A stretch of DNA of 64,000 bases. Origin: Methylocapsa sp. S129. Lineage in GTDB: Bacteria; Pseudomonadota; Alphaproteobacteria; Rhizobiales; Beijerinckiaceae. The DNA is taken from positions 1-64,000 of the forward strand of contig NZ_LMUI01000016.1 of NCBI RefSeq assembly GCF_009765995.1, given 5' to 3'. The translations under genes were made by a program, and so were the position numbers. How positions within the stretch are numbered: position 1 is the stretch's first letter; each line of letters begins with the position of its first letter. This document shows, one piece after another, positions 43,879 through 64,000 of the stretch. The notes beneath the pieces are model-generated. The model did not search any database. It was not told where the DNA came from and worked only from the letters and a program-made list of their open reading frames with translations.

Positions 43879-44574
43879 TTAATGAATTTCGCCGGCCCGT
43901 TTCAGCGCCTCCCGCATCTTGGCGCTGGTGAAGCCTGGGGCGCGGGCCACATCCAGGATCGCCTTTTCGCGACGCGCAACAAGCTCTATCGCATCGGGCA
44001 GCTTCTTTACTGCTTCTGCGGGAATGATGACGGCGCCATGGAAATCGGCGTGGATCACATCGTCATCCCTGGCGAGCATGCCGAAGACATTCACCTCGCA
44101 GCGCATCTGGACCATATGCACATGAGCGTGGCTCGGGCCGATGCGGCCGCCGATGATCTGAAAGCCGGCGGCGATCATATCGAGGTCGCGGAACGATCCA
44201 TTGGTGACGCAGCCCAATACGCCCAGTCCCCAATGGACGGTGGACTGGACTTCGCCCCAGAACGCGCCGTAGCCCGGACGATCGTCGATGTCCTGCAGCA
44301 CCGCGATCGTGGGTAGATCGGCGGCGGCGACATAGTCGTACCAATCCTCGCGCGACGGGATTGGTCCGCGCGGCTTCTCTTTCGCGCGGATGAGGCCGGT
44401 CCGCGCCACGCCGACGATCGGCGGCAGCTTGCGATCGACGGCGATCATCGGCTCGACGGTAAAGCCGATGGCGCGCCGTTCGGGCGCCACGAGTTCGAGC
44501 CCATTGCAGATCGTTGGCGTATCCCAGCGCTTGAGAATTTCGAGATCCGCAGCGGTGAAATGCCTTGTCGTCAT
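43879..44574 (-). CDS. RraA-like / HMG-aldolase-family protein
   Basis: 231 residues. RraA-type fold (beta-alpha-beta trimer): WDTPTICNGLELV, GYGAFWGEVQSTVHWGLGVLGCVTNGSFRDLDMI, and HMVQMRCEVNVFGMLARDDDVIHADFHGAVIIPAE. GCVTNGSFRD and DDDVIHAD hold the Arg/Asp residues used as metal site in the HMG/CHA aldolases of this family. Some members act as aldolases, others as RNase E inhibitors. Downstream end of the amide island, 96 bp after the amidase gene; its role there is unknown. Confidence 0.85.
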   Translation of the reverse strand: MTTRHFTAADLEILKRWDTPTICNGLELVAPERRAIGFTVEPMIAVDRKLPPIVGVARTGLIRAKEKPRGPIPSREDWYDYVAAADLPTIAVLQDIDDRPGYGAFWGEVQSTVHWGLGVLGCVTNGSFRDLDMIAAGFQIIGGRIGPSHAHVHMVQMRCEVNVFGMLARDDDVIHADFHGAVIIPAEAVKKLPDAIELVARREKAILDVARAPGFTSAKMREALKRAGEIH

Positions 44575-44670
44575 GAGAAATTCCTGCCGAAAAAAGCGAG
44601 GCCGGGGAAGAGCTGACTTAAGGAATATCGCATCGCCGCTCTGGCCGCCACGCAGAACCAGCCGCGACGA

Positions 44671-46110
44671 TCACGTCGTCGCGATCGATGGCCTGCGGTC
44701 GGCCCATGGACGCGCCTGCTCCAACAGGGCGCCGAGCCGCAGGATGTCGCCGTCGCTATGACGAGGGCCGATAATCTGGACGCTCGTCGGCAAGCCGTCC
44801 TGCGCCCAGCCCGATGGAACGGAAAGGGCGGGATGGCCGGTGAGGTTGAAGGGATAGACGAATCCGGTCAGGTGCGGCTGCGCAGGCCCGATCCCTTCGC
44901 CGTCGATCTCCACAACGCCCGAGGCGCCATTGAAATCGGCGGCGAGCGCGGTGCGGGTCAATGTCGGCGAGACCAGGAAATCGTATGTCTCGAACAGGCC
45001 CTGGACGGCGCGAAACAAACGCGTGCGCGCCGCGATCGCCTTGATGTAAGCGGCGATGTCGTATTTCTTGCCCGCGGCGACATAGGCCCGCAAAACGTGG
45101 TCGGTCTGGTCGCCGAAACGCTCAACCACTGCACCCAGATTATTGGCGATGGAGCAGAGATACAGCACCCGCTGGTCGTCTGATATCCAATCGACTTCAG
45201 CGATCACTTCTTCGACATCGGCGCCCAGATCGTTCAGTGCGCCAAGAGAATCTTTCGTGTTTTTCACGACATCGGCTGAAACAGCCTTGTTGGCGGCGCG
45301 GCTGAGATAGCCGATGCGCAGGCCGGACAGATTTTGCGACAAGAGCGCGGGTGAAATCTGGCCTAATGGAGCCGCATTCACGGTCCAGGGGTCCATCGGG
45401 TCGGCGCCCGCCATCGCCGCCTGCATGATCGCGGCATCGGCCACCGTTCGCGTCAGCGGGCCCGCTGCGACGACATTGCCGAACGCATCGCGCGCTTCTT
45501 GATAGGGCACGGCTCCTGTCGTGCCTTTGAGGCCGACAAGGCCGCAGCACGCCGCGGGGATGCGCGTCGATCCCGCGCCATCGCTGCCAAGGCCGATCGG
45601 GCCGAGACCCGAGGCGACGGCGGCTGCCGCGCCGCCGCTTGAGCCTCCCGGCGTGCGTTCGAGATTCCAGGGGTTGCGCGTCGTGCCGAAGATCGGCGCG
45701 TCGGTTTGACCTTTGATGCCGAATTCGGGCGTCGTCGTTTTGCCGATCATGATGGCGCCGGCCGCGCGCAGCCGGGTGACCAGGATATCGTCGCGGTCGG
45801 GGACATTGTCGGTGAAAGCGATCGACCCGAAAGTGGTGCGAACGCCCTTGGTCGGAATCAGGTCCTTGATGCTGACGGGAACGCCATGCAGCGGGCCGAG
45901 CTTTTGCCCTGACATGACCGCCTGCTCCGCGGCTTTCGCGCCTTCGCGCGCATGATCGGCCGTCACCGTCACGAAGCAATTGAGTTTGGGTTGCAGACGC
46001 TCGACGGCCGCCAGAACCGTATCCATATATTCGACGGGCGATAGCTTCTTGCGGCGGATTAGGGCGGCAGCGGTAATCGCCGGCATGAAGAGAAGGTCAG
46101 TATTCGCCAT
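44671..46110 (-). CDS. Amidase-signature family amidase
   Basis: 479 residues. The catalytic Ser-Ser-Lys triad is Lys82 (VSIKDLIP), Ser157 (GGSSGGAAAAV) and Ser181 (SDGAGSTRIP), the nucleophile. It hydrolyses a carboxamide to acid and ammonia or amine. No signal peptide, so it acts in the cytoplasm on an imported compound. It is 43 bp after the dppF-like gene, so it probably belongs to the transporter operon. Could also be a GatA-like paralogue, but no gatB or gatC is near. Confidence 0.93.
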   Translation of the reverse strand: MANTDLLFMPAITAAALIRRKKLSPVEYMDTVLAAVERLQPKLNCFVTVTADHAREGAKAAEQAVMSGQKLGPLHGVPVSIKDLIPTKGVRTTFGSIAFTDNVPDRDDILVTRLRAAGAIMIGKTTTPEFGIKGQTDAPIFGTTRNPWNLERTPGGSSGGAAAAVASGLGPIGLGSDGAGSTRIPAACCGLVGLKGTTGAVPYQEARDAFGNVVAAGPLTRTVADAAIMQAAMAGADPMDPWTVNAAPLGQISPALLSQNLSGLRIGYLSRAANKAVSADVVKNTKDSLGALNDLGADVEEVIAEVDWISDDQRVLYLCSIANNLGAVVERFGDQTDHVLRAYVAAGKKYDIAAYIKAIAARTRLFRAVQGLFETYDFLVSPTLTRTALAADFNGASGVVEIDGEGIGPAQPHLTGFVYPFNLTGHPALSVPSGWAQDGLPTSVQIIGPRHSDGDILRLGALLEQARPWADRRPSIATT

Positions 46111-46153
46111 GATTGAGCAGCCTTGCAGGTTGGAAAAGTTGGAAGAGGGCGGC

Positions 46154-47125
46154 TTAGAGGGTTTCGTAGAGGTGACAGGCGGTTTGGCGGCCGGGCGCCG
46201 TCTCGCGAAGCCTGGGCTCTTCGACCTGGCAGCGCGGCATGGCGTGAGGGCATCGCGTATGAAATCGGCAGCCCGGCGGCGGCGCGAGCAGGCTGGGAAC
46301 TTCGCCGCCGATCACCGGGCCTCTCACCCGTGCGGGATCAGGGCGGGGAACGGCGTCAAGCAGCGCCTGCGTATAGGGGTGCTGTGGCTGCTCGTAGAGC
46401 GCGTCCTTCGAAGCTATCTCGACGATCGAACCGGCGTAGATGACGGCGACGCGTTGGGCGACGGCGCGGACCACCGCAAGATCGTGGGCGATGAAGAGGT
46501 AGCCGATCCCGAATTTCGTTTGCAGGTCCATCAACAGATTGACGACCTGCGCCTGCATCGAGACGTCGAGCGCCGATACGGGTTCGTCGCAGACGATGAA
46601 GCCGGGCTCGAGCGCGAGCGCGCGGGCGATGACGATCCGCTGCCGCTGGCCGCCGGAAAATTCATGCGGAAACCGCTCAGCGGCGTCGCGGGGCAGGCCG
46701 ACCATCTCAAGTAGTTCTTTGACGCGATGGCTCCTGTCGCGACGCGTATGCGCGCCGGCGATGTCGATCGGCTCGGCGATGGAATCGCCCACGCGCATGC
46801 GCGGATTGAGCGCCGCATGCGGGTCCTGGAACACGAATTGGACGCGCGATCGCACGGCGGCGAGATTCGCCTTGCGCTCGGGTCCCGTGATCGTGCGGCC
46901 GAACAGTTTGACCGAACCTCCCGTCGGCTCGAACAGCCCGACTAGGATGCGTCCGGCAGTGGATTTGCCGGAGCCCGATTCGCCGACCAGGCCCAGCGTC
47001 TCGCCGCGGCCGACATCGAACGACAGCTTGCGTAGAACCTGCAGCGTGGTCCGCCGCGCACGCGCCTTGCCGACGTTGAAGGCCATATCGAGATCGCGCA
47101 CTTCGACGAGAGCGTCGTCAGCCAT
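46154..47125 (-). CDS. Dipeptide/oligopeptide ABC transporter ATPase DppF/OppF-like
   Basis: 323 residues from ATG 47125 (ATGA overlap with the preceding ATPase). Walker A GESGSGKSTA, Q-loop FQDPHAALNPRMRVGD, signature EFSGGQRQR, Walker B GFIVCDEPVSALD. The C-terminal oligopeptide-ABC domain with the CxxHAMPRC-type iron-sulfur-like cysteine cluster (RFHTRCPHAMPRC) is typical of Opp/Dpp ATPases. Works with the next four genes. Confidence 0.95.
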   Translation of the reverse strand: MADDALVEVRDLDMAFNVGKARARRTTLQVLRKLSFDVGRGETLGLVGESGSGKSTAGRILVGLFEPTGGSVKLFGRTITGPERKANLAAVRSRVQFVFQDPHAALNPRMRVGDSIAEPIDIAGAHTRRDRSHRVKELLEMVGLPRDAAERFPHEFSGGQRQRIVIARALALEPGFIVCDEPVSALDVSMQAQVVNLLMDLQTKFGIGYLFIAHDLAVVRAVAQRVAVIYAGSIVEIASKDALYEQPQHPYTQALLDAVPRPDPARVRGPVIGGEVPSLLAPPPGCRFHTRCPHAMPRCQVEEPRLRETAPGRQTACHLYETL

Positions 47126-48111: not shown

Positions 48112-48112
48112 G

Positions 48113-51602: not shown

Positions 51603-51676
51603 TTAGGTCCCCTCCGGCTTCAGCGTTTATGACGAGGGCGTTAGCGGCCTATTGCCCACGCCTGGCGTCCATAGAA

Positions 51677-51689
51677 GTATATCATATAT
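51677..51689. promoter_or_regulatory. AT-rich operator, copy 1
   Basis: GTATATCATATAT, 12 of 13 bases matching the ATATATCATATAT form. It is 75 bp upstream of the binding-protein gene that starts at 51602 on the minus strand. Inferred GntR-family site. Confidence 0.6.
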
Positions 51690-51713
51690 GAATACAAAAA
51701 TCGTGCCAGCAAC

Positions 51714-52940
51714 TTACGTCGCGCTCATGGCGTCGAAAGCGGCCTTGGTCGCTTCCAACGCAAAGTCGATATCCGCCGTAGTATGCGCCGTTGACAGAAA
51801 CATATTGTGGCGCGGATGCAGGTAGACGCCGCGCTTCAACGCCTCCAGCGTGAAACGCTCGCCTTTGGCGAAATCCGCGTCGTCGTCGAAGAGAAGCGTC
51901 GGCATCTGCGGCGGTCCGCTTTGGCGTATGCCGATTCCGGCGGCCTTAGCCTGCGCCGCGATGCCCTTGCGAAGACGCAACCCCATTTCGCGCATCTGGC
52001 GCGGTCCGTCGATGCTTTCAAGCACGTCGAGCGTCGCCACCGCGGCGGCCATCGACACGGCGCTGCACCAGAATGAGCCCGTGACGAATATGCGTGAGGC
52101 CGCATCGCGGAACCGGTCATTGCCCGTCACCGCCGCCAGGGCGTAGCCGTTGGCGATCGCCTTGCTCCAGGCGCTGAGGTCCGGCTGCACCCCGACCAGA
52201 TCCCAGCTTCCGCGCAAGGTGAGCCGAAAGCCGGCGCGGACGTCATCCAGGATTAGCGCCGCGCCCTTGGCGTCGCAGAGTTCGCGCGCGCGTTTTGCGA
52301 AGGCCGCGTCCGGCAGTTCCTGATCAAAACCATAGTCATGCCGGAACGCCGAAACGATCACGCCGGCAAGATCGTCGCCCGCGCTTGCGACCGCCGCTTC
52401 AAGGCTCGCAATGTCGTTGTAAGTGAACGTCAGCAGATGCGCGCGATCCTCCGCCGTCACGCCGAGCGGATGGGGCGAGCACCAGGGAACCGCGCCGTGA
52501 TAGGCGCCTCGCGCCGCCAATATCTTGCGGCGCCCGGTCGCGGCGCGCGCCAGGGTCACGCAGGTGGTCGTGGCGTCGGTTCCGTTCTTCGAGAACATCG
52601 CCCAGTCGGCGTGCGGGATGAGGTCGACAAGACGCTCGGCCAACTCCACCATACGCTCGGACGGCCCGTTGAGGCAGTCGCCTGCCGCCATTTGGCGCTG
52701 CACCGCCTCCGTTACCGCCGGATGTTTGTGGCCCAAGACGATCGGGCCCCAACTGCACATGAAGTCGACATAACGCCGGCCATCGACGTCCCAAAGATGG
52801 CATCCTTCGCCGCGTTCGAAAAATTGCGGATAGCCCGCCGGCAACCCCTCGCTGCGCATGTGGCCGAACATGCCGCCGGGAATGACGCGCCGTGCGCGCG
52901 CCCGAAGCTTCTGGTCTGGCGTCTCTGTATGGACATTCAT
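51714..52940 (-). CDS. Class III aminotransferase, glutamate-1-semialdehyde-mutase-like
   Basis: 408 residues, PLP-dependent fold-type I. The Schiff-base lysine is K260 in LSAWSKAIANGY, and the substrate/cofactor regions KNGTDATTTCVTLARAATGR and LILDDVRAGFRL are clear. VIPGGMFGHM and WDVDGRRYVDFMCSWGPIVLGH resemble HemL, but it is probably an amine/amino-acid aminotransferase or mutase of the island. A paralogue starts at 63649. An operator copy lies 33 bp upstream. Confidence 0.92.
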   Translation of the reverse strand: MNVHTETPDQKLRARARRVIPGGMFGHMRSEGLPAGYPQFFERGEGCHLWDVDGRRYVDFMCSWGPIVLGHKHPAVTEAVQRQMAAGDCLNGPSERMVELAERLVDLIPHADWAMFSKNGTDATTTCVTLARAATGRRKILAARGAYHGAVPWCSPHPLGVTAEDRAHLLTFTYNDIASLEAAVASAGDDLAGVIVSAFRHDYGFDQELPDAAFAKRARELCDAKGAALILDDVRAGFRLTLRGSWDLVGVQPDLSAWSKAIANGYALAAVTGNDRFRDAASRIFVTGSFWCSAVSMAAAVATLDVLESIDGPRQMREMGLRLRKGIAAQAKAAGIGIRQSGPPQMPTLLFDDDADFAKGERFTLEALKRGVYLHPRHNMFLSTAHTTADIDFALEATKAAFDAMSAT

Positions 52941-52972
52941 CGCGCAGCCCTTTTAGTTTTCCTCAGCTTACA

Positions 52973-52985
52973 ATATATGATATAT
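52973..52985. promoter_or_regulatory. AT-rich operator, copy 2
   Basis: ATATATGATATAT, the exact consensus, 33 bp upstream of the aminotransferase start and just beyond the end of the GntR-type gene (stop at 53022). Confidence 0.65.
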
Positions 52986-53795: not shown

Positions 53796-56117
53796 CTATC
53801 CCTGTGCAAGCGCCTCTTCAGGCCCCGAGGCATACACGCCCCCATCCCCGAAGAACAGACGCTGACGCGAGGACGCATCCGTCGCAATCTTCGCCCAATC
53901 GTAAAGCATGGGAACCATCTCGCCGGCGGCCCAGGTCGCGTTCTGGTTCATATGCGAGGAATTGCCCGGTTCGCCAGAGGCGCCGTGAAAGACGATCCAG
54001 CGGCAATTCTCCCAAGCGCCGACATCGAAGACATAGCGGGACAATGAGCCATATACCGCCCGAGAGCCAATGCTTCCGGCGCACCCCGTGGCGAAAACCG
54101 TATCATTGTCGCCGCCGACGGGCGCTGAGACCCGATCGAGCCTGGCCGCTTCGTCAGGAAAGGTACCGGATAGCGGATGAACGAGACGCGGCAAATGCGC
54201 GACGCCCCAATCCTCCAGCGGCGTCGCGGCGGCTTGCGCGAGCGCCAATTGCAAGAGCTCTTCCCATGACGCCCCGCCGAGCAGCGAACGATCGTCGTTG
54301 CGCAAAAGCCCTGGAACCGCCCACCACAATTGATTCTCGGCGTTCGTGCCCGGGGGCACCTGGGCATAGGGGCTCTCCATCGCGGCGCGTAGGCCGCTGC
54401 GGTCGGCGACCAGCTTCGTCAACGCCAGGCGCACGGCATTGTAAGCGGTCGCGCCTTTCGAGGCCGCCGTCATAAGCCCATCCCAATCCAGAATGGCGCG
54501 ATGCAAAGCCGCAGCGGCCGGTTCGCTCACCGTCACCGCGCGAAGACGCTCGCGCATTTCCTGACCCGGAATCGTCTCGAGATCGCGGTGGATCGCCGCC
54601 ATGTCGTCGACCGAAGCGGACGCCTGCGCCGCCAGGCGCCGCCAAATGCGCCGTGCGCGGTGGGGCGGCATCGCATCGGTGCAGAGATAATCGTCGCCCT
54701 CGGCGGCGACGCGGTTGTTCGCGGTGACGATTGCGCCGCCAGGCGGATTGATGGCGGTCGGCATGCGGCTCCAATCAATAATTCCGTCCCATTCGTGCTC
54801 TCCAGTCCAGCCGGGGACTGGCAGCCATCCGTTCGAACGGGGCCGCCGCGGCACCTTGGCGCGGACGCGATAGCCGATCTTGCCGGCCGAGTCCCCTGTG
54901 ACGAGATTATGGTCGATCAAACCCCATTCGCGCGTCGCCTCGTAGAGCGTTTCGACCGTCTTCGCCCGCAACATCGGAATCAGGCAATCGAAGGACCGGT
55001 CGGTCTCCGCAAACTGCATCGAACGGAGCGCCAGCGCCGAGCCCTTGCTCGGATCGCCGGCGATGATCGGGCCATGCCGCGTCTCCACAACCTCGACCCC
55101 GACATCGGTTTCGCCTTTGACGGCGATGTGTTCGCGACGCCGTTGAACCGGCTCCCATTGACCCTTGAACAGGCACGTCTGCGCATCGTCGGAAAAGCGC
55201 TCGACATAGAGGTCGTGAATATCCACGAAAGCGTGGGTGACGCACCAGGCGACTGACCCGTTATGGGCGAAATGGGGGAAACCTGGCACGCCGGGAACGG
55301 TCAGGCCGATCGCATCGAATTCGTCGCAGGCCAGATGGATCTGCGCGTACATATTGGGCATTTCCAACACGCGATGCGGGTCGCCGGCGAGCAGCGGACG
55401 CCCCGTCGCGGTGCGGTCGGGGCTTAACGCCCAGTTGTTGCTGCCGCCGCCGGTGACATCGGGGGCCGCGATATCGAGCAAGGCTTCAATTCCCGGACGC
55501 AGATCTTCGAGCGCCGCGCGATAGGGCCCTGTCTCAAGGCCTGGAGGTAGGCACAGAAGTTCGTTTCCCCCGTCTTCGAAGCGCAGCTTGGCGATTCCCT
55601 CCGCCCCGACGATTGGCAAAGAGGAGGCGCGCCACAGCTTCCACCAGACCGAACCCATCAGAAATCCGATTTGCCTCATCACCGCGATCGAGTGCCAGGG
55701 AAGCCACGCGATCGGCTCGACGTTGAGCAACCGATATTCGACGGGACGATAGCCGGTTGCGATGAAGCCGTTGACGCCGCGCGCGTAGGATTCCAGCATC
55801 GCGCGGGCTTCCGCTCCCAGAGCGGCGAAATCTCGTTGCGAGGCGCCGGCGGTGTTCACCTGCCGCGCCAGGATATCGCCGCTAACCGCCACTTTGCCGA
55901 CCCATTCGGCATAATGTCCGGTGCCCCGGCGAAGCAACGCCTCCATCTGCCAAAGCCTGTCCCGCGCATGGACAAAGCCGAGCGCCGCGAAGGCGTCCGA
56001 TCGGGAGCGCGCTTTGATGTGCGGGATGCCCCAGGCGTCGCGCCATATATCGGCGCCCGGCGATTCGCCCGTTTCGTTGCGAAAATTGGGCGTTGCGGAC
56101 GCTGCCTTTGCAGTCAT
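53796..56117 (-). CDS. Penicillin-acylase-family Ntn hydrolase lacking a signal peptide
   Basis: 773 residues from ATG 56117 (AAGGAA eight bases before it); a TTG 12 codons earlier is possible. The N terminus (MTAKAASATPNFRNETGE) is hydrophilic, so unlike classic periplasmic acylases it should stay in the cytoplasm. The self-cleavage/nucleophile Ser226 is in TGGGSNNWALSP, the alpha chain starts with IWRDAWGIPHIKA, and the beta chain has VPGVPGFPHFAHNGSVAWCVTHAF. It hydrolyses an amide of a carboxylic acid. Neighbours are the dimethylformamidase-like genes and the GntR gene. Confidence 0.92.
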   Translation of the reverse strand: MTAKAASATPNFRNETGESPGADIWRDAWGIPHIKARSRSDAFAALGFVHARDRLWQMEALLRRGTGHYAEWVGKVAVSGDILARQVNTAGASQRDFAALGAEARAMLESYARGVNGFIATGYRPVEYRLLNVEPIAWLPWHSIAVMRQIGFLMGSVWWKLWRASSLPIVGAEGIAKLRFEDGGNELLCLPPGLETGPYRAALEDLRPGIEALLDIAAPDVTGGGSNNWALSPDRTATGRPLLAGDPHRVLEMPNMYAQIHLACDEFDAIGLTVPGVPGFPHFAHNGSVAWCVTHAFVDIHDLYVERFSDDAQTCLFKGQWEPVQRRREHIAVKGETDVGVEVVETRHGPIIAGDPSKGSALALRSMQFAETDRSFDCLIPMLRAKTVETLYEATREWGLIDHNLVTGDSAGKIGYRVRAKVPRRPRSNGWLPVPGWTGEHEWDGIIDWSRMPTAINPPGGAIVTANNRVAAEGDDYLCTDAMPPHRARRIWRRLAAQASASVDDMAAIHRDLETIPGQEMRERLRAVTVSEPAAAALHRAILDWDGLMTAASKGATAYNAVRLALTKLVADRSGLRAAMESPYAQVPPGTNAENQLWWAVPGLLRNDDRSLLGGASWEELLQLALAQAAATPLEDWGVAHLPRLVHPLSGTFPDEAARLDRVSAPVGGDNDTVFATGCAGSIGSRAVYGSLSRYVFDVGAWENCRWIVFHGASGEPGNSSHMNQNATWAAGEMVPMLYDWAKIATDASSRQRLFFGDGGVYASGPEEALAQG

Positions 56118-56167
56118 GAAAGTCGTTCCTTGCCAAGCGCGGTTTTCGTTCAAGAATAGATGTTTGT

Positions 56168-58408
56168 TCAGAGAGGCGTGCTGTCCAGAAAGCGCCTGAG
56201 AACATTGCCCGTCACCTGACTGACGTTGTTCCGATAGCCTGCATGCGAAAGAGCGCAGACCCAGGCGATGGAGCCAGTCGAAAAGACAGCGCCGCCGTTG
56301 GCCGTAGGGAAGAAAGCGAGGTCAGCCCTCACTTGCGCATTTTGGTCGCCCATGATGCCGCGATGCAGCGTGCGCAGTTCTTCAGGGGTCGGCGTTCCGC
56401 CGTAACCGAGGCGGTCGGCCGTCGCCAGCCATACCAGGCCGGGCGGCGAGCCCAGCGTTGGTTCGACGCGATCGATTTCGATGCCAGCCGCGCCATTGCC
56501 GCGCAGGCCGAAATCGCCCAGCGGCGCGTCGAGATCGACGCCCTCTGTCAGCCACGCTACAGAGGGGTCGCGAGCGCCGTCGAGCCAGCGGTAGAAAGAG
56601 GATTCTGTGAATACCTGTCCATCGAAACCGACGCCGAGCAGGCGCTGAGGCGGGCGTCCGTTGCTCCGCCACGTACAGGACGGTTCTCCGGTAAAAGCAA
56701 GCGCGGTTTCTCCCGCTTCTCCCTCCCAGGTGCGCAATCCGCTCATGCCGCGTCGCATCTCGATCGTATGCGGCAGCGTCGGATGATAGGCGATGCGCCA
56801 ATAGAATCCATTGCCGCCAAGATACATGTGGCGACCGCCGCCTTGCTGATAAGCGTCGAAAGCGTCCCATATTTCCCGACTGATATATTCGGGATGCGAG
56901 CCTGTGATGACGCAGGCGTAGGGCGCCAGCGTCTGGACGCCATGGCGATGGATATCGTCGTCGGTAATGATATCGTAGGACTGCCCCAATTCCTCGAGCC
57001 AATCGAGCAAATGCGTGTCGTTTCCATAGTTGAAAACATTGCCGCGCGGCCGCGTATTAAGGATGGGGCGACGGGCCGTGCTGATGCTCCAGCCGCTTCC
57101 GTCGTTGTGGGTGTCGTAGGTGGAGAGGCCGAGCTCGCGATGCTCCTGGAGGTAGAGATCGTCGTGCGATAGCGTGAGCAGCCCCTCCAGCATGGCTTCG
57201 GCATGCACCTGGTCAAGACGAAGCGCGCTATTGGCGTAAGCTAGGAAAGTGCCCGTGCTAGCGACGAAGGCGAGCCGCGACTGAGGCTTGCCGAGTTCCG
57301 CGCGCACAAAGAACGCGACAAAGCTTTCCACCGGGTCGGCGTTCCCCTGCCTGGCTCGCAACCGCAGCGCATAGAAGCCGCTGCGCCAAGCGCTTGGCGT
57401 CGTCAGATGAAGCGTGGGGGCCCAACCAGCGTCCGCCATGTCGTCGCTATGGAAATGGATGGCTCCATATTGCGATGGCGCTTCGGTCCAGCGTTCGCTG
57501 CTTCCATTCCAATTGACCCCCGTCATCGCGCGCGTCGGCATCTGGCGCAACACGCCGTGCAGTCGATGCGCCGAGAGATCGCGCACCTGATCGGTCGGGA
57601 TATCCTGAGAGAAGTCCCAGGCGGCGATCAGAAGAGGATCGGCGGCAGCGGGCGTGGCGGCTTCGCAAAGGCGATGCAGCCCATCGATCGATAGCGCGGC
57701 GGCGTAGACGCGCGGGCGATCGATCTTTCCGTCGTAGAAGGCTTCGCAAAGGGCCGCGTCGCCAGCGTCTTTGGCGCGGGCGGCGATGACGAGCGGAGTA
57801 TCCATGGGCCAGGAAAGCGATGTCGGCCCTTCGCCCTCGACGACAACGCTGCGGTCGCGTCCGGCTTGTGGGTCGAGGCTGCGGACCATCACGCTGATGC
57901 GTCCGGTAGCGGGATCGTAGGCGCCGCCGGCCAGCACCCATTCCCGGGTCAATAGAGGAAGCCGCGACGCGACGCGCCAGGACTGGCCCTTGGCGGCCAG
58001 CACAAACTCAAGACAACCATCGGCGTCGAGGCCAAGCCGCCAGCCGGCCTTGATATCTTCCCGCCAGCGCGACAGGATCGTCTGCGGACGGGCGCCGGGC
58101 AAGGTCGGCCAGAGAAAAGCGCCGACGGTGAACGCGCCAAGCTTCGCCAGCGTCGGCGAATCTGGAATGATGGCGCAAGAACCGGGATAAATGGGCTGAT
58201 TGGCGAGGGCGACCGGTCCGTTGATCGCGCAGTCGAGTTCCGTCAGCTTCAGACCCGGTCCGTTCGGATCCGGGTCTGCGCATCGCACGCGCACCAGCGT
58301 CGCCTCGGCGCCGTCTAGCGTTTTGCTCGACAGGTGGAAAGCGATCGGCTCGCCGGGCGAGACGATCAGCGGCCATGCATAGCCCAGAACGGCCGTTGTA
58401 TCGGTCAT
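56168..58408 (-). CDS. dmfA2: N,N-dimethylformamidase-like large (beta) subunit
   Basis: 746 residues from ATG 58408 (ATGA overlap with the small subunit gene). The characterised enzyme hydrolyses dimethylformamide to formate and dimethylamine with a mononuclear iron held by two Tyr and one Glu. Matching residues are Y391 (FLAYANSALR), Y431 (LSTYDTHNDGSGW) and E507 with H505 (TGSHPEYIS); N533 (GGNGFYWR) and E644 (AGIEIDRV) match further catalytic residues in spacing. A LamG-like sandwich lies at about 85-260. The family holds uncharacterised relatives, so DMF itself is not assured. Confidence 0.85.
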   Translation of the reverse strand: MTDTTAVLGYAWPLIVSPGEPIAFHLSSKTLDGAEATLVRVRCADPDPNGPGLKLTELDCAINGPVALANQPIYPGSCAIIPDSPTLAKLGAFTVGAFLWPTLPGARPQTILSRWREDIKAGWRLGLDADGCLEFVLAAKGQSWRVASRLPLLTREWVLAGGAYDPATGRISVMVRSLDPQAGRDRSVVVEGEGPTSLSWPMDTPLVIAARAKDAGDAALCEAFYDGKIDRPRVYAAALSIDGLHRLCEAATPAAADPLLIAAWDFSQDIPTDQVRDLSAHRLHGVLRQMPTRAMTGVNWNGSSERWTEAPSQYGAIHFHSDDMADAGWAPTLHLTTPSAWRSGFYALRLRARQGNADPVESFVAFFVRAELGKPQSRLAFVASTGTFLAYANSALRLDQVHAEAMLEGLLTLSHDDLYLQEHRELGLSTYDTHNDGSGWSISTARRPILNTRPRGNVFNYGNDTHLLDWLEELGQSYDIITDDDIHRHGVQTLAPYACVITGSHPEYISREIWDAFDAYQQGGGRHMYLGGNGFYWRIAYHPTLPHTIEMRRGMSGLRTWEGEAGETALAFTGEPSCTWRSNGRPPQRLLGVGFDGQVFTESSFYRWLDGARDPSVAWLTEGVDLDAPLGDFGLRGNGAAGIEIDRVEPTLGSPPGLVWLATADRLGYGGTPTPEELRTLHRGIMGDQNAQVRADLAFFPTANGGAVFSTGSIAWVCALSHAGYRNNVSQVTGNVLRRFLDSTPL

Positions 58409-58770: not shown

Positions 58771-59826
58771 CTACCGCGTCAGCCAGGACACCCAGCGCTC
58801 GCGCATCTTGGCGCGCTCGCTGGCGATCCACGCATAGTCGGCGATGATCAGCTTCTCGTAATTTTCGGGATAGCTTGGCCGATAGCGCCGCTCTTCGGGA
58901 GGCGCTTGCGCGCTCGCTTCCTTATTGTTCGAATCGAAGCTGACCTCGGTGCTGAACGGCAGGTGCTCGGTGGGGTTCTGCACGAAGAAGTCCAGGAATT
59001 TTAACGCGTTCTGCATATTCGGGCTGCCCTTGAGCACGGCCCAATTGCCCGTGTCGCGTATGGACCCGTTCCAGGTGAAATCGAAGTCGCCGCTCTTGGT
59101 CAGCGGCACGGCGCGACTGGAATAAAGCATGCTCATGACGGCGTCGCCGCCGCGCAGCACCTGCATCGAATTGTCGCCGCTCTTCCACCACACCGCGACC
59201 TGCGGCTTGATGGCGTCGAGCTTCTTGTAGGCGCGGTCGAGATCCATCGGAAACAGCTTGTCGCGCGGCACGCCATCGGCGATCAGCGCCGCCAGTGGGA
59301 CCCACCATTCGCGGTCGCCCGTGTCCGGCAGGGAGCGCGGCCCGGGGAATTTGGCGGTGTCGAAGAAATCCGCCCAGGATTGAGGGCCGCCGTTGGGGAA
59401 GGCTTTCTTGCTCCAGGTCAGCACCATGCCGCCCACCGTGCGGATCAACCCTTTCGGGCCGCAACTGTTGGGCAAGGCATGGGCGACGATCCCCGGCATA
59501 TTGGCGCAGTCGAGCGTCTCAAGAATGTCCGCTTGCTGGATAAGATCCGGAGGCGTGGCCGTCACAACGTCGAACGGCACGTTGCCGGTACGCTCGCCGG
59601 CGATGGCGCGCGCCCATTGGTCCGGGATTTCAATCGCGACGGCGCGGATACGGATGCCGGTCTCAGCTTCGAAGCGCTTGTAAAAATGCGTCTGCAAGCT
59701 GTTGGTCATCAGGCCGCCCGTGGTGGCGACAATGACCTCGCCTGGGTCGGCTCGGGCGCTTCGAAGCGCGGGAAAAGCGGCAACAGCTCCCGCTGCTGCG
59801 ATCAGGCTACGGCGTGTCATCCTCAT
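58771..59826 (-). CDS. ABC transporter substrate-binding protein, polyamine/Fe3+ type
   Basis: 351 residues. A Tat-like signal (MTRRSLIAAAGAVAAFPALR, cleaved near SARA) precedes a bacterial-SBP family 1/8 fold: VIVATTGGLMTNSLQTHFYKRFEAETG and PQSWADFFDTAKFPG, as in PotD/AfuA-type proteins. It would carry a cationic or small organic solute for the PotB-, PotC- and PotA-like components. It is followed 6 bp later by the dmfA1 gene, linking uptake with hydrolysis. Confidence 0.92.
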   Translation of the reverse strand: MRMTRRSLIAAAGAVAAFPALRSARADPGEVIVATTGGLMTNSLQTHFYKRFEAETGIRIRAVAIEIPDQWARAIAGERTGNVPFDVVTATPPDLIQQADILETLDCANMPGIVAHALPNSCGPKGLIRTVGGMVLTWSKKAFPNGGPQSWADFFDTAKFPGPRSLPDTGDREWWVPLAALIADGVPRDKLFPMDLDRAYKKLDAIKPQVAVWWKSGDNSMQVLRGGDAVMSMLYSSRAVPLTKSGDFDFTWNGSIRDTGNWAVLKGSPNMQNALKFLDFFVQNPTEHLPFSTEVSFDSNNKEASAQAPPEERRYRPSYPENYEKLIIADYAWIASERAKMRERWVSWLTR

Positions 59827-59857: not shown

Positions 59858-60655
59858 CTAACTTCGGCTCATGCCGCGCCTCAAGAAATGCCCTGCCGTC
59901 AGCGCGAGCAAGGTCAATCCCGTGAGCATGGTCGCCACGGCGGCGAGGGTCGGCGAAATATTGTAATCGATATCCTCGAACATCTTGCGCGGCAGCGACT
60001 TGTGATCGAGATCAGAAATGAAGAACGAGATGACTGGCTCATCGAAGGAGATGATGAAGGCGAAGAGCGCCGCCGACACGACGCCGGGTGCAATCAGGGG
60101 CAATGTCACGTGAAAGAAAGCCCGTAGCGGTCCCGCTCCGCAGGATAGAGCGGCGCGTTCAAGATCGGCGTCGAAGCGATAAAGGGACGCCAGCAACGTG
60201 AATATGACGAAGGGCAGGGCGAGCGCCGTATGCGCGACGACAAAGCCGACGGTCGTTCCCGTCAGGCGCAGCCGGTCGAAGACGAGGAACATCGCGATGG
60301 CGAGCGCGATATTGGGCACGATCACCGGCCCGACAACGAGAAGTTCGAACAAGGACTTGCCCGGCAAGCGGCCGCGCACCAAAGCAAGGGAGACGAGCGT
60401 GCCGACGACGGTCGCGACGATCATCGTCAGCACGGCGATCCTCAAGCTGAACAGCGTCGAGTCGACCCATTCCGGATCTGCGAAGAATTCAGCGTACCAG
60501 TGCAACGTGAAGCCGTTGGGCGGGAAGTGCAAATAACGATCCGGACCAAAGGACATCGGAATGATAAGAATTGTGGGCAGCAGCAGGAAGACGGTCACGG
60601 CATAAGCCACGGCGCTGACGGTCATGATTCCGGAAGATGTGCGGCGCCGCCTCAT
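59858..60655 (-). CDS. ABC transporter permease, PotC-like
   Basis: 265 residues from ATG 60655 (the longer frame overlaps the preceding permease). Six membrane segments and the EAA loop (LERAALSCGAGPLRAFFHVTLPLIAPG) are present. PotC-like members pair with PotB-like proteins. It overlaps the upstream permease by four bases. Confidence 0.93.
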   Translation of the reverse strand: MRRRRTSSGIMTVSAVAYAVTVFLLLPTILIIPMSFGPDRYLHFPPNGFTLHWYAEFFADPEWVDSTLFSLRIAVLTMIVATVVGTLVSLALVRGRLPGKSLFELLVVGPVIVPNIALAIAMFLVFDRLRLTGTTVGFVVAHTALALPFVIFTLLASLYRFDADLERAALSCGAGPLRAFFHVTLPLIAPGVVSAALFAFIISFDEPVISFFISDLDHKSLPRKMFEDIDYNISPTLAAVATMLTGLTLLALTAGHFLRRGMSRS

Positions 60656-61521
60656 ACCTGTCCCACGAAGCGATCGAGCCTGATGAGGCGGTTGAAGATC
60701 AAGACGAGGCAGAGAACAAAAGCAAGAAGCACGCCGATGATGGCGCCCGAGAAGGGCCAATCGAGCAACTCAGTCACCTGTTGCTGCACCAAAGTCGCCA
60801 GCATCATTTGCTGGGGGCCGCCGACGAGCGCCGGCGTCACAAAAAAACCGAGCGCAAGGAGGAACACCATAAGGCATCCCGACGCGACGCCGGGAAGCGT
60901 CAGCGGCAAGACCACATGGCGGAAGGCGGCGAAGCCGCCCGCTCCCAGAACCTGGGCTGCTCGCATATAATCGTCAGGGATGCCGCGCAACGCGGCGTAA
61001 AGCGGCAGAACCATGAAGGGCAGGAGGACATGGCTCATCGCCAGAACCACCGCGCCTTCCGTGTAGAGGAACTGCACGGGGGCGTCGACCAGGCCGAGCG
61101 CGGTGAGGATCTGATTGACCACGCCATTGCGCTGCAACAGCACGAGCCACGCATAGGTGCGCACCAGCACCGAAGTCCAAAGCGGCAAAAGAACGGCGAT
61201 CAGCAGAAGCCCGAGCAATAGACCGCGGCTGCGCGCGATCAGCCAAGCGAGCGGATAACCAAGCAGTAGCGCCGCGATCGTCACCAGAGCGGAAATGCGC
61301 AACGTGCGCAGCATGACGCGCAGATAGACCTCTTGGTCGAAGACCCTCGCGTAATTGTCGAGATTGAATTTGGGAACGGAGAGGCTCTCGTGCAGCAGGG
61401 TAAAAAGCGGCAGAAGAAAAGCGAGAATCATCACCAGGATGAACGGCGTCGCCAACAGCAGGCTCGCCGCGGGACTGTAGGTGCGGCCGCCGAGCGTGAA
61501 GCTTGTGGGCCGCTTTGTCAT
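60652..61521 (-). CDS. ABC transporter permease, PotB-like
   Basis: 289 residues from ATG 61521 (ATGA overlap with the ATPase stop). Six membrane segments; the EAA loop is DDYMRAAQVLGAGGFAAFRHVVLPLTLPG. Partner of the PotC-like protein. Confidence 0.94.
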   Translation of the reverse strand: MTKRPTSFTLGGRTYSPAASLLLATPFILVMILAFLLPLFTLLHESLSVPKFNLDNYARVFDQEVYLRVMLRTLRISALVTIAALLLGYPLAWLIARSRGLLLGLLLIAVLLPLWTSVLVRTYAWLVLLQRNGVVNQILTALGLVDAPVQFLYTEGAVVLAMSHVLLPFMVLPLYAALRGIPDDYMRAAQVLGAGGFAAFRHVVLPLTLPGVASGCLMVFLLALGFFVTPALVGGPQQMMLATLVQQQVTELLDWPFSGAIIGVLLAFVLCLVLIFNRLIRLDRFVGQV

Positions 61522-62639
61522 GATGTGGGATAAGCCCGCGCATCCTGCGGGCGCCATGTGAGGGATAGGTCCGCGCCAGGCCGCGGTTCCGCTGTTTCAT
61601 CGCCCGCCGAGAGCCTCGCGCGCAGAATCGGCCCCTTCGTGCGCAGCATCAATGTCGTGACGCTGCCCGCATAGATCGCTTCCTCCACCGTTCCGCCGAC
61701 CCCGCCCGCCGCCGCCGGTCCGAGCCGGACGCGTTCCGGGCGGACGGCGAGGCGGACTTGGGTTCCCTTGCGAAGCGGGGTCGCCGCGCAGGCCTGGGCG
61801 ATTTCGCCGCCTTCAAGCTGGACCGCGAGTTGTTCGTTGGCTGCGGCGTCGCTTGTCGCGATTCCGGGCCAGAAATTGCTCTCGCCGATGAAGCCCGCGA
61901 CGAATTCGGTCGCCGGCGCCTCATAGAGATCTTTCGGGGCGCCGATCTGCTGGAGCGCGCCGAGGTTCAAGACCGCGACCCGATCGGCCATCGTCAGAGC
62001 TTCGGTCTGGTCATGCGTGACGAAAATGACCGTGACGCCAAGTTTGCGCTGAAGATGCTTGATCTCGATCTGCATTTCTTCGCGCAGGTTTTTATCGAGC
62101 GCAGAGAGGGGCTCGTCCATCAGCAGGACCTGCGGATTGTAGACGATGGCGCGCGCGAGCGCGACGCGTTGCTGCTGTCCTCCCGACAATTGCGCTGGCC
62201 GGCGGTCCCCGTAGCCATCGAGACGGACCGTCTGAAGAGCCGCGCGCGCGCGCTTCTCGCGCTCGGCTCGCCCGACTTTGCGCATTCTTAGGGGAAAAGC
62301 GATGTTGTCGAGGACGCTCATGTGCGGAAATAGCGTGTAGCGCTGGAACACCATGCCAAGGTCACGCTTGTCAGGCGACATCCAGGTCACGTCGCGGCCG
62401 CTAATCTCGATGCGTCCGGAATCGGGAAAGTCGAATCCGGCGATGTTCATCAAGATTGTCGTCTTGCCGGAGCCCGACGGACCCAAAAGCGCCAGAAATT
62501 CACCGCCGCGGACATCAAGGCTGACGCCATTGACCGCCACGACATCGGCATAGCGTTTGACCAGGTCGCGCACCGCCACCTGACCCGCGGATCCGACGGC
62601 AATCGATGAATTTCGTCGCTCGTGCAAATACTTGCTCAT
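61518..62639 (-). CDS. ABC transporter ATPase, PotA-like
   Basis: 373 residues from ATG 62639. No good Shine-Dalgarno precedes it, and the operator/AT element lies 19 bp upstream, so a short-leader or leaderless transcript is possible. Walker A GPSGSGKTTI, Q-loop FQRYTLFPHMS, signature QLSGGQQQR, Walker B VLLMDEPLSALD, H-loop VTHDQTEAL, and a C-terminal TOBE domain (VRPERVRLGP). First gene of the long minus-strand transcript of the amide island. Confidence 0.95.
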   Translation of the reverse strand: MSKYLHERRNSSIAVGSAGQVAVRDLVKRYADVVAVNGVSLDVRGGEFLALLGPSGSGKTTILMNIAGFDFPDSGRIEISGRDVTWMSPDKRDLGMVFQRYTLFPHMSVLDNIAFPLRMRKVGRAEREKRARAALQTVRLDGYGDRRPAQLSGGQQQRVALARAIVYNPQVLLMDEPLSALDKNLREEMQIEIKHLQRKLGVTVIFVTHDQTEALTMADRVAVLNLGALQQIGAPKDLYEAPATEFVAGFIGESNFWPGIATSDAAANEQLAVQLEGGEIAQACAATPLRKGTQVRLAVRPERVRLGPAAAGGVGGTVEEAIYAGSVTTLMLRTKGPILRARLSAGDETAEPRPGADLSLTWRPQDARAYPTS

Positions 62640-62657
62640 CGAGAGTGTCAATTCGTA

Positions 62658-62670
62658 ATATATAATATAT
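62658..62670. promoter_or_regulatory. AT-rich operator, copy 3
   Basis: ATATATAATATAT, consensus with A at the centre, between the PotA-like gene (start 62639, minus) and the SDR gene (start 62767, plus). It may serve both. Confidence 0.6.
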
Positions 62671-62766
62671 CTTACTCTCTCCGCTCCGCAACCAAAAAGA
62701 CGCTGGGCCTGATCGCAGCCCTTTTGGCGCCGGATGAGGCGATGCGATGACAGAGAGGTTCTCCTT

Positions 62767-63582
62767 ATGGCGAAGAGCAAAACTCGATCGACTGGACCGG
62801 TCGCCATCGTCACGGGCGGAACGCACGGCATTGGGCGCGCGAGCGTCGAATTACTATCAGAGTCAGGTTGGCAAGTCGTGTTTCAGGGGCGCAGCGAGCG
62901 GGCGGGTCTCGAGCTTGAAGCAAGCCGCGCGGGCTTGAGCTATGTGCCGGGCGACCTTACGGAAGAAAAAATCATCCAGCGTCTGGTGGCCCGCGCCGAA
63001 GAGCTTGGCGAGGGACGTATTGCTGGCCTTGTGAACAACGCCGGCGTCGGCGTTCGCAAGCGCTTCGAGGATTGTGAAGCGTCGGATTGGGATAAGCTGT
63101 TCGCGATCAACGCCCGCAGCGCGTTTCTGGTGACGCGCGCGGCGTTGAAGGGCCTCAGAGCGGCGCGCGGCTCTGTTGTGTTTATCTCCTCGGTGGCGGG
63201 CCGCGGCGGCGAGGATGGGCTGTCGGTCTACTGCGCCACGAAGGCGGCATTGATCGGGCTGGCCAAAGCGCTCGCCATTGAACTTGGAGAGGAGGTCCGC
63301 TTCAATGTTCTGTGTCCGGGCCAGATCGCCACGCGCATGATGGCGCGCGTGGTCGAGGCGCCCGATCTCCTCGCCGCGGTCTCCAGCCGCATTCCGATGC
63401 GGCGCCTCGGAGAGGCGGGCGAGGTCGCCTCCGCAATCTCATTTCTTCTGTCTCCCGCGTCGTCCTTCATCAACGGCGTCGTCTTCGCCGTCGATGGCGG
63501 CGAGACGGCCGGCATCATGGGTGTCGCCGCGCCGAGCCCTCAACCGCGCAAGCGACGAAGCAAGGCGTCAGTGGGAAACTGA
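62767..63582 (+). CDS. Short-chain dehydrogenase/reductase
   Basis: 271 residues from ATG 62767, which has GAGAGG upstream; the frame opens at 62734. Cofactor motif VTGGTHGIGRAS, the NNAG motif (GLVNNAGVGVR), Ser in FISSVAGRG and Tyr-Lys in YCATK. The C-terminal end has a basic tail (RKRRSK). First plus-strand gene of the island, followed 66 bp later by the second aminotransferase. It may oxidise or reduce an aldehyde/alcohol made in the pathway; that is inference. Confidence 0.92.
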   Translation: MAKSKTRSTGPVAIVTGGTHGIGRASVELLSESGWQVVFQGRSERAGLELEASRAGLSYVPGDLTEEKIIQRLVARAEELGEGRIAGLVNNAGVGVRKRFEDCEASDWDKLFAINARSAFLVTRAALKGLRAARGSVVFISSVAGRGGEDGLSVYCATKAALIGLAKALAIELGEEVRFNVLCPGQIATRMMARVVEAPDLLAAVSSRIPMRRLGEAGEVASAISFLLSPASSFINGVVFAVDGGETAGIMGVAAPSPQPRKRRSKASVGN

Positions 63583-63599
63583 CGTTGTTGACGCTATAA

Positions 63600-63612
63600 A
63601 TATATCATATAT
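63600..63612. promoter_or_regulatory. AT-rich operator, copy 4
   Basis: ATATATCATATAT, the exact reverse complement of the copy at 52973, 37 bp upstream of the second aminotransferase start. Confidence 0.65.
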
Positions 63613-63648
63613 TATCTTAGCGATTGATCGACTGACACAGGTGTGCGG

Positions 63649-64000
63649 ATGACCCGGGTTGATTCAGCACTGAATTTGACGCGGGACGCCGATCTGCGTC
63701 GGCGCGCGACGAAAGTCATTCCTGGCGGCATGTGGGGGCATATGAATGTCGCCCGTCTCCCGCCGGGCTATCCCCAATATTTCAGCCAAGCGCGCGACTG
63801 TCGGGTCTGGGACGTCGATGGCAATGAATATGTCGACATGATGTGTTCCTTTGGCCCGATCATTCTCGGCCATGCCGATCCGGATGCGGAAAACGCCGCC
63901 GCCCAGCAGCGCAGCCGCGGCGATACGATGACAGGGCCGGCCGAATGCCAGGTCGAGCTTGCAGAGCTTCTCGTCGATACGCTCCCTCATGCCGACTGGG
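63649..64000 (+). CDS. Class III aminotransferase, second copy, 5' part
   Basis: The frame starts at ATG 63649 and runs off the right edge after 117 codons. It aligns without gaps to the aminotransferase at 51714-52940: VIPGGMWGHM against VIPGGMFGHM, WDVDGNEYVDMMCSFGPIILGH against the same region, and PHADW; by hand 59 of 102 residues are identical. The PLP lysine lies beyond the window. It is a paralogue within the same island, preceded by an operator copy. Confidence 0.88.
   Translation, partial: MTRVDSALNLTRDADLRRRATKVIPGGMWGHMNVARLPPGYPQYFSQARDCRVWDVDGNEYVDMMCSFGPIILGHADPDAENAAAQQRSRGDTMTGPAECQVELAELLVDTLPHADW

What the first reader, a model, noticed from the sequence alone, without database searches (positions are those of the whole stretch)
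43879..64000. Apparently undescribed amide-catabolic island with two importers and four hydrolases
One 20-kb block holds a polyamine-type ABC importer, a dimethylformamidase-like pair, a penicillin-acylase-family hydrolase, an amidase, an Opp/Dpp importer, two paralogous class III aminotransferases, an SDR and an RraA-like protein. Three enzyme classes cleave C-N amide bonds and all lack signal peptides, so an imported amide is broken down inside the cell. I know of DMF pathways and polyamine uptake separately, but not this combination. Substrate is not predicted.
Basis: partly seen in the sequence, partly recalled or inferred. Interest (0 to 1): 0.85.

Follow-up and report, generated by a model that had tools for sequence, protein, structure and literature searches.

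The report
Co-regulated amide-to-amino-alcohol breakdown regulon
A bacterium carries a set of genes, apparently all under one DNA switch, that most likely imports amide-containing compounds, cuts off the amide inside the cell and breaks down the freed amino-alcohol; the same set and switch recur in other bacteria, but the compound is unknown.

Summary
The genes are there, and the island is larger than reported. It runs from RraA (43879) past the window end to about contig position 68,900: a second aminotransferase, a split transketolase, a DUF1537 kinase and a FucA-like aldolase follow. Both class III aminotransferases are ~50% identical to FumI, which deaminates hydrolysed fumonisin. The DMFase-like pair keeps all five catalytic residues; the penicillin-acylase protein is 59% identical to a cephalosporin acylase.

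The set is co-conserved. Of 31 DmfA2 loci, 18 have a FumI-like gene nearby; of the other 13, all five whose genomes I searched hold one elsewhere (class rate: 12 of 384). A palindromic operator (GATATATCAWATA) lies in four intergenic gaps of the island; in 25 genome handles all 23 exact sites lie beside pathway families, often on separate contigs. Pathway-associated sites occur in 18 of 18 genomes with the GntR and 0 of 6 without.

Best reading: amide import, intracellular hydrolysis, FumI-type transamination to an alpha-hydroxyketone, then cleavage by a ThDP enzyme and/or kinase-aldolase. The substrate is unknown; an N-acylated vicinal amino-alcohol is the favoured type. Enzyme families are known; my searches found no paper describing the regulon.

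The parts
43879..44574 (-). RraA-like protein (aldolase/decarboxylase family); last gene of the run; not found in the related loci examined
   Evidence: PF03737 39.9 bits, cut-off 24.5; no hit in the loci
44671..46110 (-). amidase-signature hydrolase; 58-62% relatives lie beside operator sites in Roseomonas-type genomes
   Evidence: PF01425 347.6 bits
46154..51602 (-). Opp/Dpp-type importer: OppF 46154-47215, OppD 47125-48111, OppC 48113-49057, OppB 48990-49934, SBP5 50037-51602
   Evidence: Pfam
51676..51690 (.). operator-like palindrome between AT3a and oppA (2 mismatches, both strands; the weakest of the four)
51714..52940 (-). AT3a: FumI-type class III aminotransferase (49.6% to FumI)
   Evidence: PF00202; best PDB 6hbs E=1e-130, next 7e-57
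52972..52986 (.). operator, exact GATATATCATATA on minus strand, between GntR and AT3a
53022..53789 (-). GntR/FCD regulator, proposed to bind the operator
   Evidence: PF00392+PF07729; co-occurrence with operator 18/18 vs 0/6
53796..56153 (-). penicillin-acylase-family Ntn hydrolase; beta chain starts at Ser238 (SNNW); 59% to a cephalosporin acylase beta chain
   Evidence: PF01804 566.6 bits; 4hsr_B E=1e-205; 313/529
56168..58408 (-). DmfA2: DMFase-type large subunit (ORF extends to 58570; likely start MTDTTAV); Fe ligands conserved
   Evidence: PF20254 295.6 bits
58405..58764 (-). DmfA1: DMFase-type small subunit, 119 aa
   Evidence: homologous small ORF before DmfA2 in 23 of 31 loci (family F3)
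58771..59826 (-). PotD-type substrate-binding protein; best PDB match a mannopine-binding protein
   Evidence: PF13416; 5l9s E=5e-52
59858..61557 (-). PotC (59858-60760) and PotB (60652-61557) permeases
61518..62639 (-). PotA ATPase (likely start at 62639; the ORF runs to 62831)
62657..62671 (.). operator between divergent potA and SDR
62767..63582 (+). SDR-family dehydrogenase (55-59% relatives in the three Bosea clusters)
63599..63613 (.). operator just upstream of AT3b
63643..64000 (+). start of AT3b (C23:63643-64896), second FumI-type aminotransferase; followed beyond the window by TktN 64968-65831, TktC 65828-66847, DUF1537 kinase 66914-68191, class II aldolase 68254-68901 (contig coordinates)

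Best explanation
The island is a GntR-controlled catabolic regulon. Two ABC importers (Pot-type and Opp-type) bring in one or more amide-containing compounds. DMFase-like, Ntn and amidase-signature hydrolases remove acyl groups in the cytoplasm. A FumI-type aminotransferase moves the freed amino group, probably to pyruvate, leaving an alpha-hydroxyketone. That ketone is then cut between carbons by a thiamin-diphosphate enzyme (a two-chain transketolase here, a fused E1-type enzyme in Roseomonas) and/or phosphorylated by a DUF1537 kinase and split by a FucA-type aldolase, giving DHAP and an aldehyde. The most likely substrate type is an N-acylated vicinal amino-alcohol or amino-polyol. Shown here: the gene set, its co-conservation and the shared operator. 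Inferred: operator binding by this GntR, every reaction step, and the substrate type.
For: Co-conservation: of 31 loci found by DmfA2, 25 hold PotABCD and 18 a FumI-like aminotransferase within the ~10-kb flanks. I searched the genomes of 18 of the 31; 13 of these had already shown the aminotransferase in the locus, and the five that had not (L005, L010, L012, L014, L028) all have one elsewhere. The class rate is 12 of 384. In those 12, a DMFA2_C gene lies within 10 kb in 4, against 0.09 expected. Operator: 65 site rows at <=1 mismatch in 25 genome handles against 11 for the reversed pattern. All 23 exact sites are beside a pathway-family gene; of 42 one-mismatch sites 26 are, 2 are uncertain, 13 are not, 1 was not examined. 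In G445 and G447, whose pot locus has no aminotransferase, all 8 other sites lie at pathway families (AT3a, amidase/SBP5, GntR-E1/PenAcy, SBP5-kinase-aldolase; one at an amidase and a potA fragment). In Stella G182 the only second site is in front of TktN/TktC, 2 Mb away. GntR: pathway sites in 18 of 18 genomes with it, 0 of 6 distinct without. FumI chemistry: PMC2933618 figure legend. Aldolase closest to FucA, kinase over the OtnK cut-off.
Against: No enzyme was assayed. ~50% identity to FumI does not fix the substrate. The class II aldolase misses the OtnC cut-off (91 vs 250 bits) and the kinase passes OtnK only narrowly (371 vs 350), so the product of the kinase step is a guess. Why both a ThDP enzyme and a kinase-aldolase pair are needed is unclear. 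Not every FumI-like gene has this company: of the 12 class loci, 4 have DMFA2, 2 a transketolase pair and 2 a kinase-aldolase pair nearby; L067, L069 and L070 showed none of these among what I scanned, and L069 sits among TCA-cycle genes (not all ORFs were scanned). In the L005 genome DmfA2 and the aminotransferase lie on different contigs with no operator. 13 one-mismatch operator sites fall elsewhere. RraA is not conserved, and the oppA operator is the weakest. The genomes were not a random sample: they were chosen from DmfA2 or aminotransferase hits.
Confidence: 0.5

Rival explanations
1. One regulon, but the amine set free is not a vicinal amino-alcohol (for example a beta-amino acid, gamma-glutamyl amine or opine-like amine); the kinase, aldolase and transketolase act on another part of the molecule or on a by-product.
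For: The DmfA2 best PDB match is an N-acetyl-(R)-beta-phenylalanine acylase; beta-Phe aminotransferases are also in the AT3a hit list, far weaker (120 bits against 436). PotD is nearest to a mannopine-binding protein. In L060 a FumI-like gene lies near a gamma-glutamyltranspeptidase and an SDR.
Against: Aminotransferase similarity is far closer to FumI than to beta-amino-acid enzymes. This aminotransferase is often beside ketose-type enzymes (kinase + class II aldolase, or ThDP enzyme): 11 of the 14 plasmid loci read, though five of the 11 are near-copies.
Confidence: 0.28
2. Two or more separate catabolic operons that merely lie side by side (pot-dmf-penicillin acylase; opp-amidase-RraA; AT3b-transketolase-kinase-aldolase).
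For: Different genomes carry different subsets; RraA and the exact Opp proteins are not conserved.
Against: One operator motif lies in front of all of them in the window and, in other genomes, in front of the same families on separate contigs.
Confidence: 0.1
3. A DMF or formamide (C1/methylamine) utilisation island like that of Paracoccus.
For: DmfA1A2-like pair with the residues matching iron ligands Y399, Y440, E521 and H519, N547 conserved.
Against: DmfA2 is 36.6% identical to the annotated Paracoccus aminophilus DMFase; no dimethylamine or methylamine genes among the island's Pfam families; aminotransferase, kinase, aldolase and transketolase have no place in DMF breakdown; pocket residue F693 of DMFase aligns to a position that is Thr in 31 of 31 loci.
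Confidence: 0.05
4. A detoxification or resistance island against an amide antibiotic or toxin (beta-lactam, amphenicol, fumonisin-like) rather than a nutrient pathway.
For: Relatives of a cephalosporin acylase and of FumI.
Against: Two importers and a plausible carbon-skeleton route fit nutrition better. No search for resistance genes was made.
Confidence: 0.07

Closest known systems
FumI aminotransferase (fumonisin-degrading Sphingopyxis MTA144)
   Same: Same group of class III aminotransferases; ~50% identity; FumI nests among DMFA2-linked homologues of Roseomonas and Variovorax.
   Different: No esterase among the island's Pfam families; amide hydrolases, two ABC importers and a ThDP enzyme instead. 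The MTA144 fum cluster itself was not compared.
N,N-dimethylformamidase (DmfA1A2) and N-acetyl-(R)-beta-phenylalanine acylase
   Same: Large and small subunit arrangement, DMFA2_C domain, all five catalytic residues.
   Different: Different operon partners; the aromatic pocket residue F693 of DMFase aligns to Thr.
Glutaryl-7-ACA / cephalosporin acylase (4hsr)
   Same: 59% identity over the beta chain, same Ser nucleophile start.
   Different: Sits in a catabolic regulon; its physiological substrate is presumably not a cephalosporin.
Four-carbon acid-sugar pathways with DUF1537 kinase (OtnK) and class II aldolase/decarboxylase (OtnC)
   Same: Kinase passes the NCBI 3-oxo-tetronate kinase cut-off; adjacent class II aldolase-family gene.
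   Different: Aldolase is FucA-like, well under the OtnC cut-off; an aminotransferase seems to feed the route.
Mannopine/polyamine-type Pot importers
   Same: PotABCD layout, PotD nearest a mannopine-binding protein.
   Different: No opine-handling enzyme recognised among the island's Pfam families.

Membership tests
DMFase family (DmfA1A2) | DMFA2_C domain in large subunit | tested here: met
   295.6 bits, cut-off 27
DMFase family (DmfA1A2) | Fe ligands Tyr, Tyr, Glu and catalytic His, Asn | tested here: met
   Y445, Y485, E561, H559, N587 in 31 of 31 loci; residue list from PMC7686228 passages
DMFase family (DmfA1A2) | separate small subunit gene | tested here: met
   58405-58764; position and size only, no Pfam model matches a homologue and it was not aligned to the DMFase small subunit
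DMFase family (DmfA1A2) | hydrolysis of DMF | not testable with these tools
   needs an assay
Ntn penicillin/cephalosporin acylase | autoprocessed Ser at beta-chain N-terminus | tested here: met
   beta chain of 4hsr aligns from Ser238; processing itself not shown
Ntn penicillin/cephalosporin acylase | activity on glutaryl-7-ACA or cephalosporin C | not testable with these tools
   needs an assay
FumI-type aminotransferase | closer to FumI than to HemL | tested here: met
   436 vs 196 bits; 463 bits for AT3b; tree
FumI-type aminotransferase | deamination of a 2-amino-3-hydroxy compound with pyruvate | not testable with these tools
   reaction of FumI from PMC2933618; not assayed for AT3a/b
3-oxo-tetronate (OtnK/OtnC) pathway | 3-oxo-tetronate kinase model over cut-off | tested here: met
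   371.2 vs 350, narrowly
3-oxo-tetronate (OtnK/OtnC) pathway | 3-oxo-tetronate 4-phosphate decarboxylase model over cut-off | tested here: not met
   91.4 vs 250
Paracoccus-type DMF utilisation | linked dimethylamine/methylamine oxidation genes | tested here: not met
   none among the island's Pfam families; the rest of the genome was not searched
Paracoccus-type DMF utilisation | growth on DMF | not testable with these tools
   needs culture

The most novel reading that the evidence does not exclude
A widespread, previously unrecognised pathway for N-acylated 2-amino-1,3-diols, including ceramide-like or phytosphingosine-like headgroups: amide hydrolysis, transamination by the family to which FumI belongs, then transketolase-type or kinase-plus-aldolase cleavage to DHAP and an aldehyde. 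FumI and the cephalosporin acylases would be recruits from this pathway.
Probability: 0.15. Interest if true: 0.85.

Novelty: new variant of a known kind. Interest (0 to 1): 0.6.

Why it matters
It gives a defined, testable regulon (operator, regulator, importers, hydrolases, aminotransferase, C-C cleaving enzymes) in several alphaproteobacterial genera. It offers a possible natural setting for two enzyme families known mainly as tools: FumI, studied for fumonisin detoxification (PMC2933618, passages), and the industrial cephalosporin acylases, whose native role I take (general knowledge) to be unsettled. Because exact copies of the operator are so specific, it can be used to find the gene set in other genomes and to trap the inducer.

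Tried and rejected
Chloramphenicol-type substrates: three- to five-term searches returned 1, 5, 1 and 0 papers, none with a title on an aminotransferase/transketolase route (listings only, none opened); unsupported, not excluded. Sphingosine, DUF1537-aminotransferase and 3-oxo-tetronate-amidase searches returned no papers. DMFase with beta-Phe acylase gave none. Of the 13 papers naming dimethylformamidase (listing) none has a title on this gene set; of one (PMC7686228) I saw passages. Passages of PMC7711896 added nothing. The library is open-licence only.

DMF pathway: rejected as above. Operator-like sites in the own genome outside the island: near C38:410078 the next sizeable gene scanned, 1.1 kb away, is an amino-acid kinase/PUA protein, and near C17:885768 a Mutator-family transposase; taken as background, not excluded; the weaker ones were only checked for pathway families. 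The Bosea site C12:467967 lies between two SBP genes, and the same sequence recurs in a second Bosea (G455:C4), so it may be a further regulon member; I counted both as outside the pathway.

The aminotransferase tree uses 46 of 61 rows; 15 were dropped as duplicates or near-copies. Its root and long rows (L065_3605, Streptomyces) are unsure.

Counting notes. G458 and G280 give the same aminotransferase coordinates and are taken as one genome, so the 25 handles are 24 genomes. Palindromic sites can count on both strands (for example G340:C41:75271 and 75273), so 65 is a count of rows. The operator was first seen upstream of potA in these loci and then at other genes of the same loci, so most sites are not independent tests; the 8 further sites in G445 and G447, on contigs not seen before, are the better test. 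15 of the 23 exact sites are at potA. One listed site (G455:C9) was not examined. L020 was not held. 'Beside' means a family hit within about 1.5 kb or in the fetched cluster. Of 15 plasmid records with a FumI-like gene, 14 were read. In one search the Fisher value for 17/17 against 12/384 (1e-22) treats a chosen set as a sample, so I do not rely on it.
Full report
What is there. The window is C23:1-64000 of a 6.87-Mb draft genome. Its class is taken as Alphaproteobacteria because class-mate G182 has the contig length of Stella sp. ATCC 35155. From 62639 down to 43879, 16 genes run on the minus strand: potABCD, dmfA1, dmfA2, a penicillin-acylase-family gene, gntR, aminotransferase AT3a, oppABCDF, amidase, rraA. 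Divergent from potA, on the plus strand, come an SDR and AT3b, and beyond the window end the two halves of a transketolase, a DUF1537 kinase and a class II aldolase-family gene. The reported block is about four fifths of the island.

Enzyme identities. AT3a and AT3b match FumI (6hbs, aminopentol aminotransferase) with 436 and 463 bits; for AT3a the next PDB family, HemL, scores 196 bits. Identity to FumI is 50% and 51%. In a 46-row tree FumI lies inside a clade of 13 (support 100/99) in which 7 of the 12 other rows sit beside DMFA2 (Roseomonas-type L011 and L016, Variovorax L037 and L038, unnamed L065, L066, L071); AT3a and AT3b lie outside that clade in the same wider group. FumI moves the C2 amino group of hydrolysed fumonisin B1 to pyruvate and leaves a 2-keto-3-hydroxy compound (PMC2933618, figure legend and passages). 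DmfA2 is a relative of DMFase and of N-acetyl-(R)-beta-phenylalanine acylase. The iron ligands Y399, Y440 and E521 and the essential H519 and N547 of DMFase (PMC7686228, passages) correspond to Y445, Y485, E561, H559 and N587 of the ORF, present in 31 of 31 loci. The penicillin-acylase protein keeps the Ser that starts the beta chain and is 59% identical to the beta chain of 4hsr. PotD is nearest to a mannopine-binding protein. The kinase passes the 3-oxo-tetronate kinase cut-off (371 vs 350); the aldolase is FucA-like and fails the matching decarboxylase cut-off.

Conservation. A DmfA2 scan of named genomes gave 31 loci. PotABCD with DmfA2 is in 25 of 31, a FumI-like aminotransferase in 18 of 31. 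Nine Roseomonas-type loci add GntR, AT3a, penicillin acylase and a fused E1-type ThDP enzyme (L015, L017-L020, L022-L025); two Stella loci add penicillin acylase, GntR and AT3a; three Bosea clusters carry SDR, class II aldolase, kinase, TktN, TktC, GntR, Pot, Dmf and AT3a, most of the window's set, and one of them was read further and has penicillin acylase and an SBP5 next door. L005-L010 have Pot-Dmf without GntR or aminotransferase. Plasmid records show similar company around FumI-like genes: Variovorax (AT, GntR, TktN, TktC, amidase, penicillin acylase, SBP, permeases), a Pseudoroseomonas plasmid (DmfA1A2, amidase, aldolase, kinase, AT, SBP, GntR), Rhizobium SSA_523 (Pot, Dmf, Tkt, GntR, AT, Opp), Shinella and Agrobacterium with E1-E2, Rhizobium BG4, Novosphingobium and Nonomuraea with kinase and aldolase. 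A ThDP enzyme or a kinase-aldolase pair is present in 11 of 14 such loci, not all independent; L037, L043 and L089 have neither.

Statistics. FumI-like genes (E<=1e-90) occur in 12 of 384 class genomes besides the own one, DMFA2_C in 76 of 384. Eight of the 12 have DMFA2_C against 68 of 372 others (Fisher p=4e-4), and 4 of the 12 have it within 10 kb against 0.09 expected (p=3e-6). In the other direction I searched the genomes of 18 of the 31 DmfA2 loci: all 18 have one FumI-like gene. Thirteen of these had shown it in the locus already; L005, L010, L012, L014 and L028 had not. Eight loci without a visible aminotransferase (L006-L009, L013, L033-L035) were not checked. In the own genus 1 of 10 other genomes has the close DmfA2 (82%), so the island is patchily distributed.

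Operator. An AT-rich palindrome stood out upstream of potA in a 63%-GC region. TAATATATAATATA with up to 3 mismatches is found 11 times in the window against 0.04 expected; 9 of the 11 rows fall into four intergenic gaps of the island, 2 lie near 22760. The shared consensus is GATATATCAWATA. All 17 pot/dmf loci that contain the GntR have it near potA at <=1 mismatch; L005-L010 have neither; L012 and L014 have the site, and their GntR is on another contig. Genome-wide, at <=1 mismatch, 25 handles hold 65 site rows (reversed-pattern control 11). Exact sites: 23 of 23 beside a pathway-family gene, 15 of them at potA. One-mismatch sites: 26 of 42 beside a pathway gene, 2 beside distant SBP5 genes (uncertain), 13 elsewhere, 1 not examined. 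Two genomes serve as near-blind tests because their pot locus lacks the aminotransferase. In G445 the other three sites are in front of AT3a, between penicillin acylase and GntR-E1, and between SBP5 and the amidase orthologue. In G447 the other five are in front of AT3a, between amidase and SBP5, between GntR-E1 and penicillin acylase, in front of an SBP5 followed by kinase and aldolase, and between an amidase and a potA fragment. In Stella G182 the second and last site is about 90 bp in front of the TktN match, 2 Mb from the cluster. The GntR orthologue (E<=1e-40) is in 18 handles, each with a pathway-associated site, and absent from 7 handles (6 genomes), none with one. That this GntR binds the site is inferred.

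How it most likely works. Import by Pot and Opp systems; cytoplasmic amide hydrolysis by one or more of three hydrolase classes; transamination by AT3a/AT3b to an alpha-hydroxyketone (by analogy with FumI); cleavage of that ketone. Both downstream modules, a ThDP C-C cleaving enzyme and a kinase plus FucA-type aldolase, act on ketose-like alpha-hydroxyketones in known relatives (family knowledge), which is why I favour a vicinal amino-alcohol, ideally a 2-amino-1,3-diol. Several hydrolase classes may mean several acyl groups or more than one amide bond per molecule. The substrate is not identified; sphingoid-like, amino-polyol, gamma-glutamyl and amphenicol-like amides remain open. Importers with soluble binding proteins argue against long-chain ceramides.

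Novelty. All enzyme families are known. The regulon, its operator and the DMFase-FumI-transketolase link were not found in the ten literature searches made, which cover an open-licence library only.

Noticed in passing
L004 8960-19001 (C23:68959-79000) and L091 start: Directly downstream of the island lies a Pot-type importer with a nitrilase-like carbon-nitrogen hydrolase (by eye), a GntR-like gene and a further amidase; no site of this operator at <=2 mismatches was found in L004 beyond those of the island. Possibly a second amide pathway.
   Followed up: partly
G000:C51:476542-478785: A second DMFA2 paralogue (42%) elsewhere in the own genome.
   Followed up: no
G338 (whole genome): Ten DMFA2_C genes in one 3.8-Mb genome, four of them on contig C32; an unexplored expansion.
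   Followed up: no
L060 and L061: The closest relatives of AT3a (79-80%); in L060 it lies by an SDR and a gamma-glutamyltranspeptidase gene, again an amide-cleaving enzyme. No operator site and no close GntR in these genomes.
   Followed up: partly
L041, L042, L084, L085, L088: Shinella, Agrobacterium and Sinorhizobium plasmids carry a closely similar block: E2, aldolase, kinase, acyl-CoA dehydrogenase, fused E1, SBP5, FumI-like AT, class IV aminotransferase.
   Followed up: partly
L149 8968 and L191 7808 (two Bosea genomes): The same one-mismatch operator sequence recurs in two Bosea genomes; in L149 it lies between two solute-binding-protein genes; possibly a further importer of the regulon.
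   Followed up: partly
L183 6138-6555 (G447:C68): An exact operator followed by a short potA-like fragment, as if a promoter and potA start had been duplicated.
   Followed up: no
window 40495-43819: D-lyxose-isomerase-family gene, nucleoside-hydrolase-family ORF and MatE transporter just outside the island; no link looked for.
   Followed up: no
L021 12479-13801: In Bradyrhizobium LHD-71 a creatinase/M24-family gene sits between DmfA2 and AT3a, perhaps another C-N hydrolase of the pathway.
   Followed up: no
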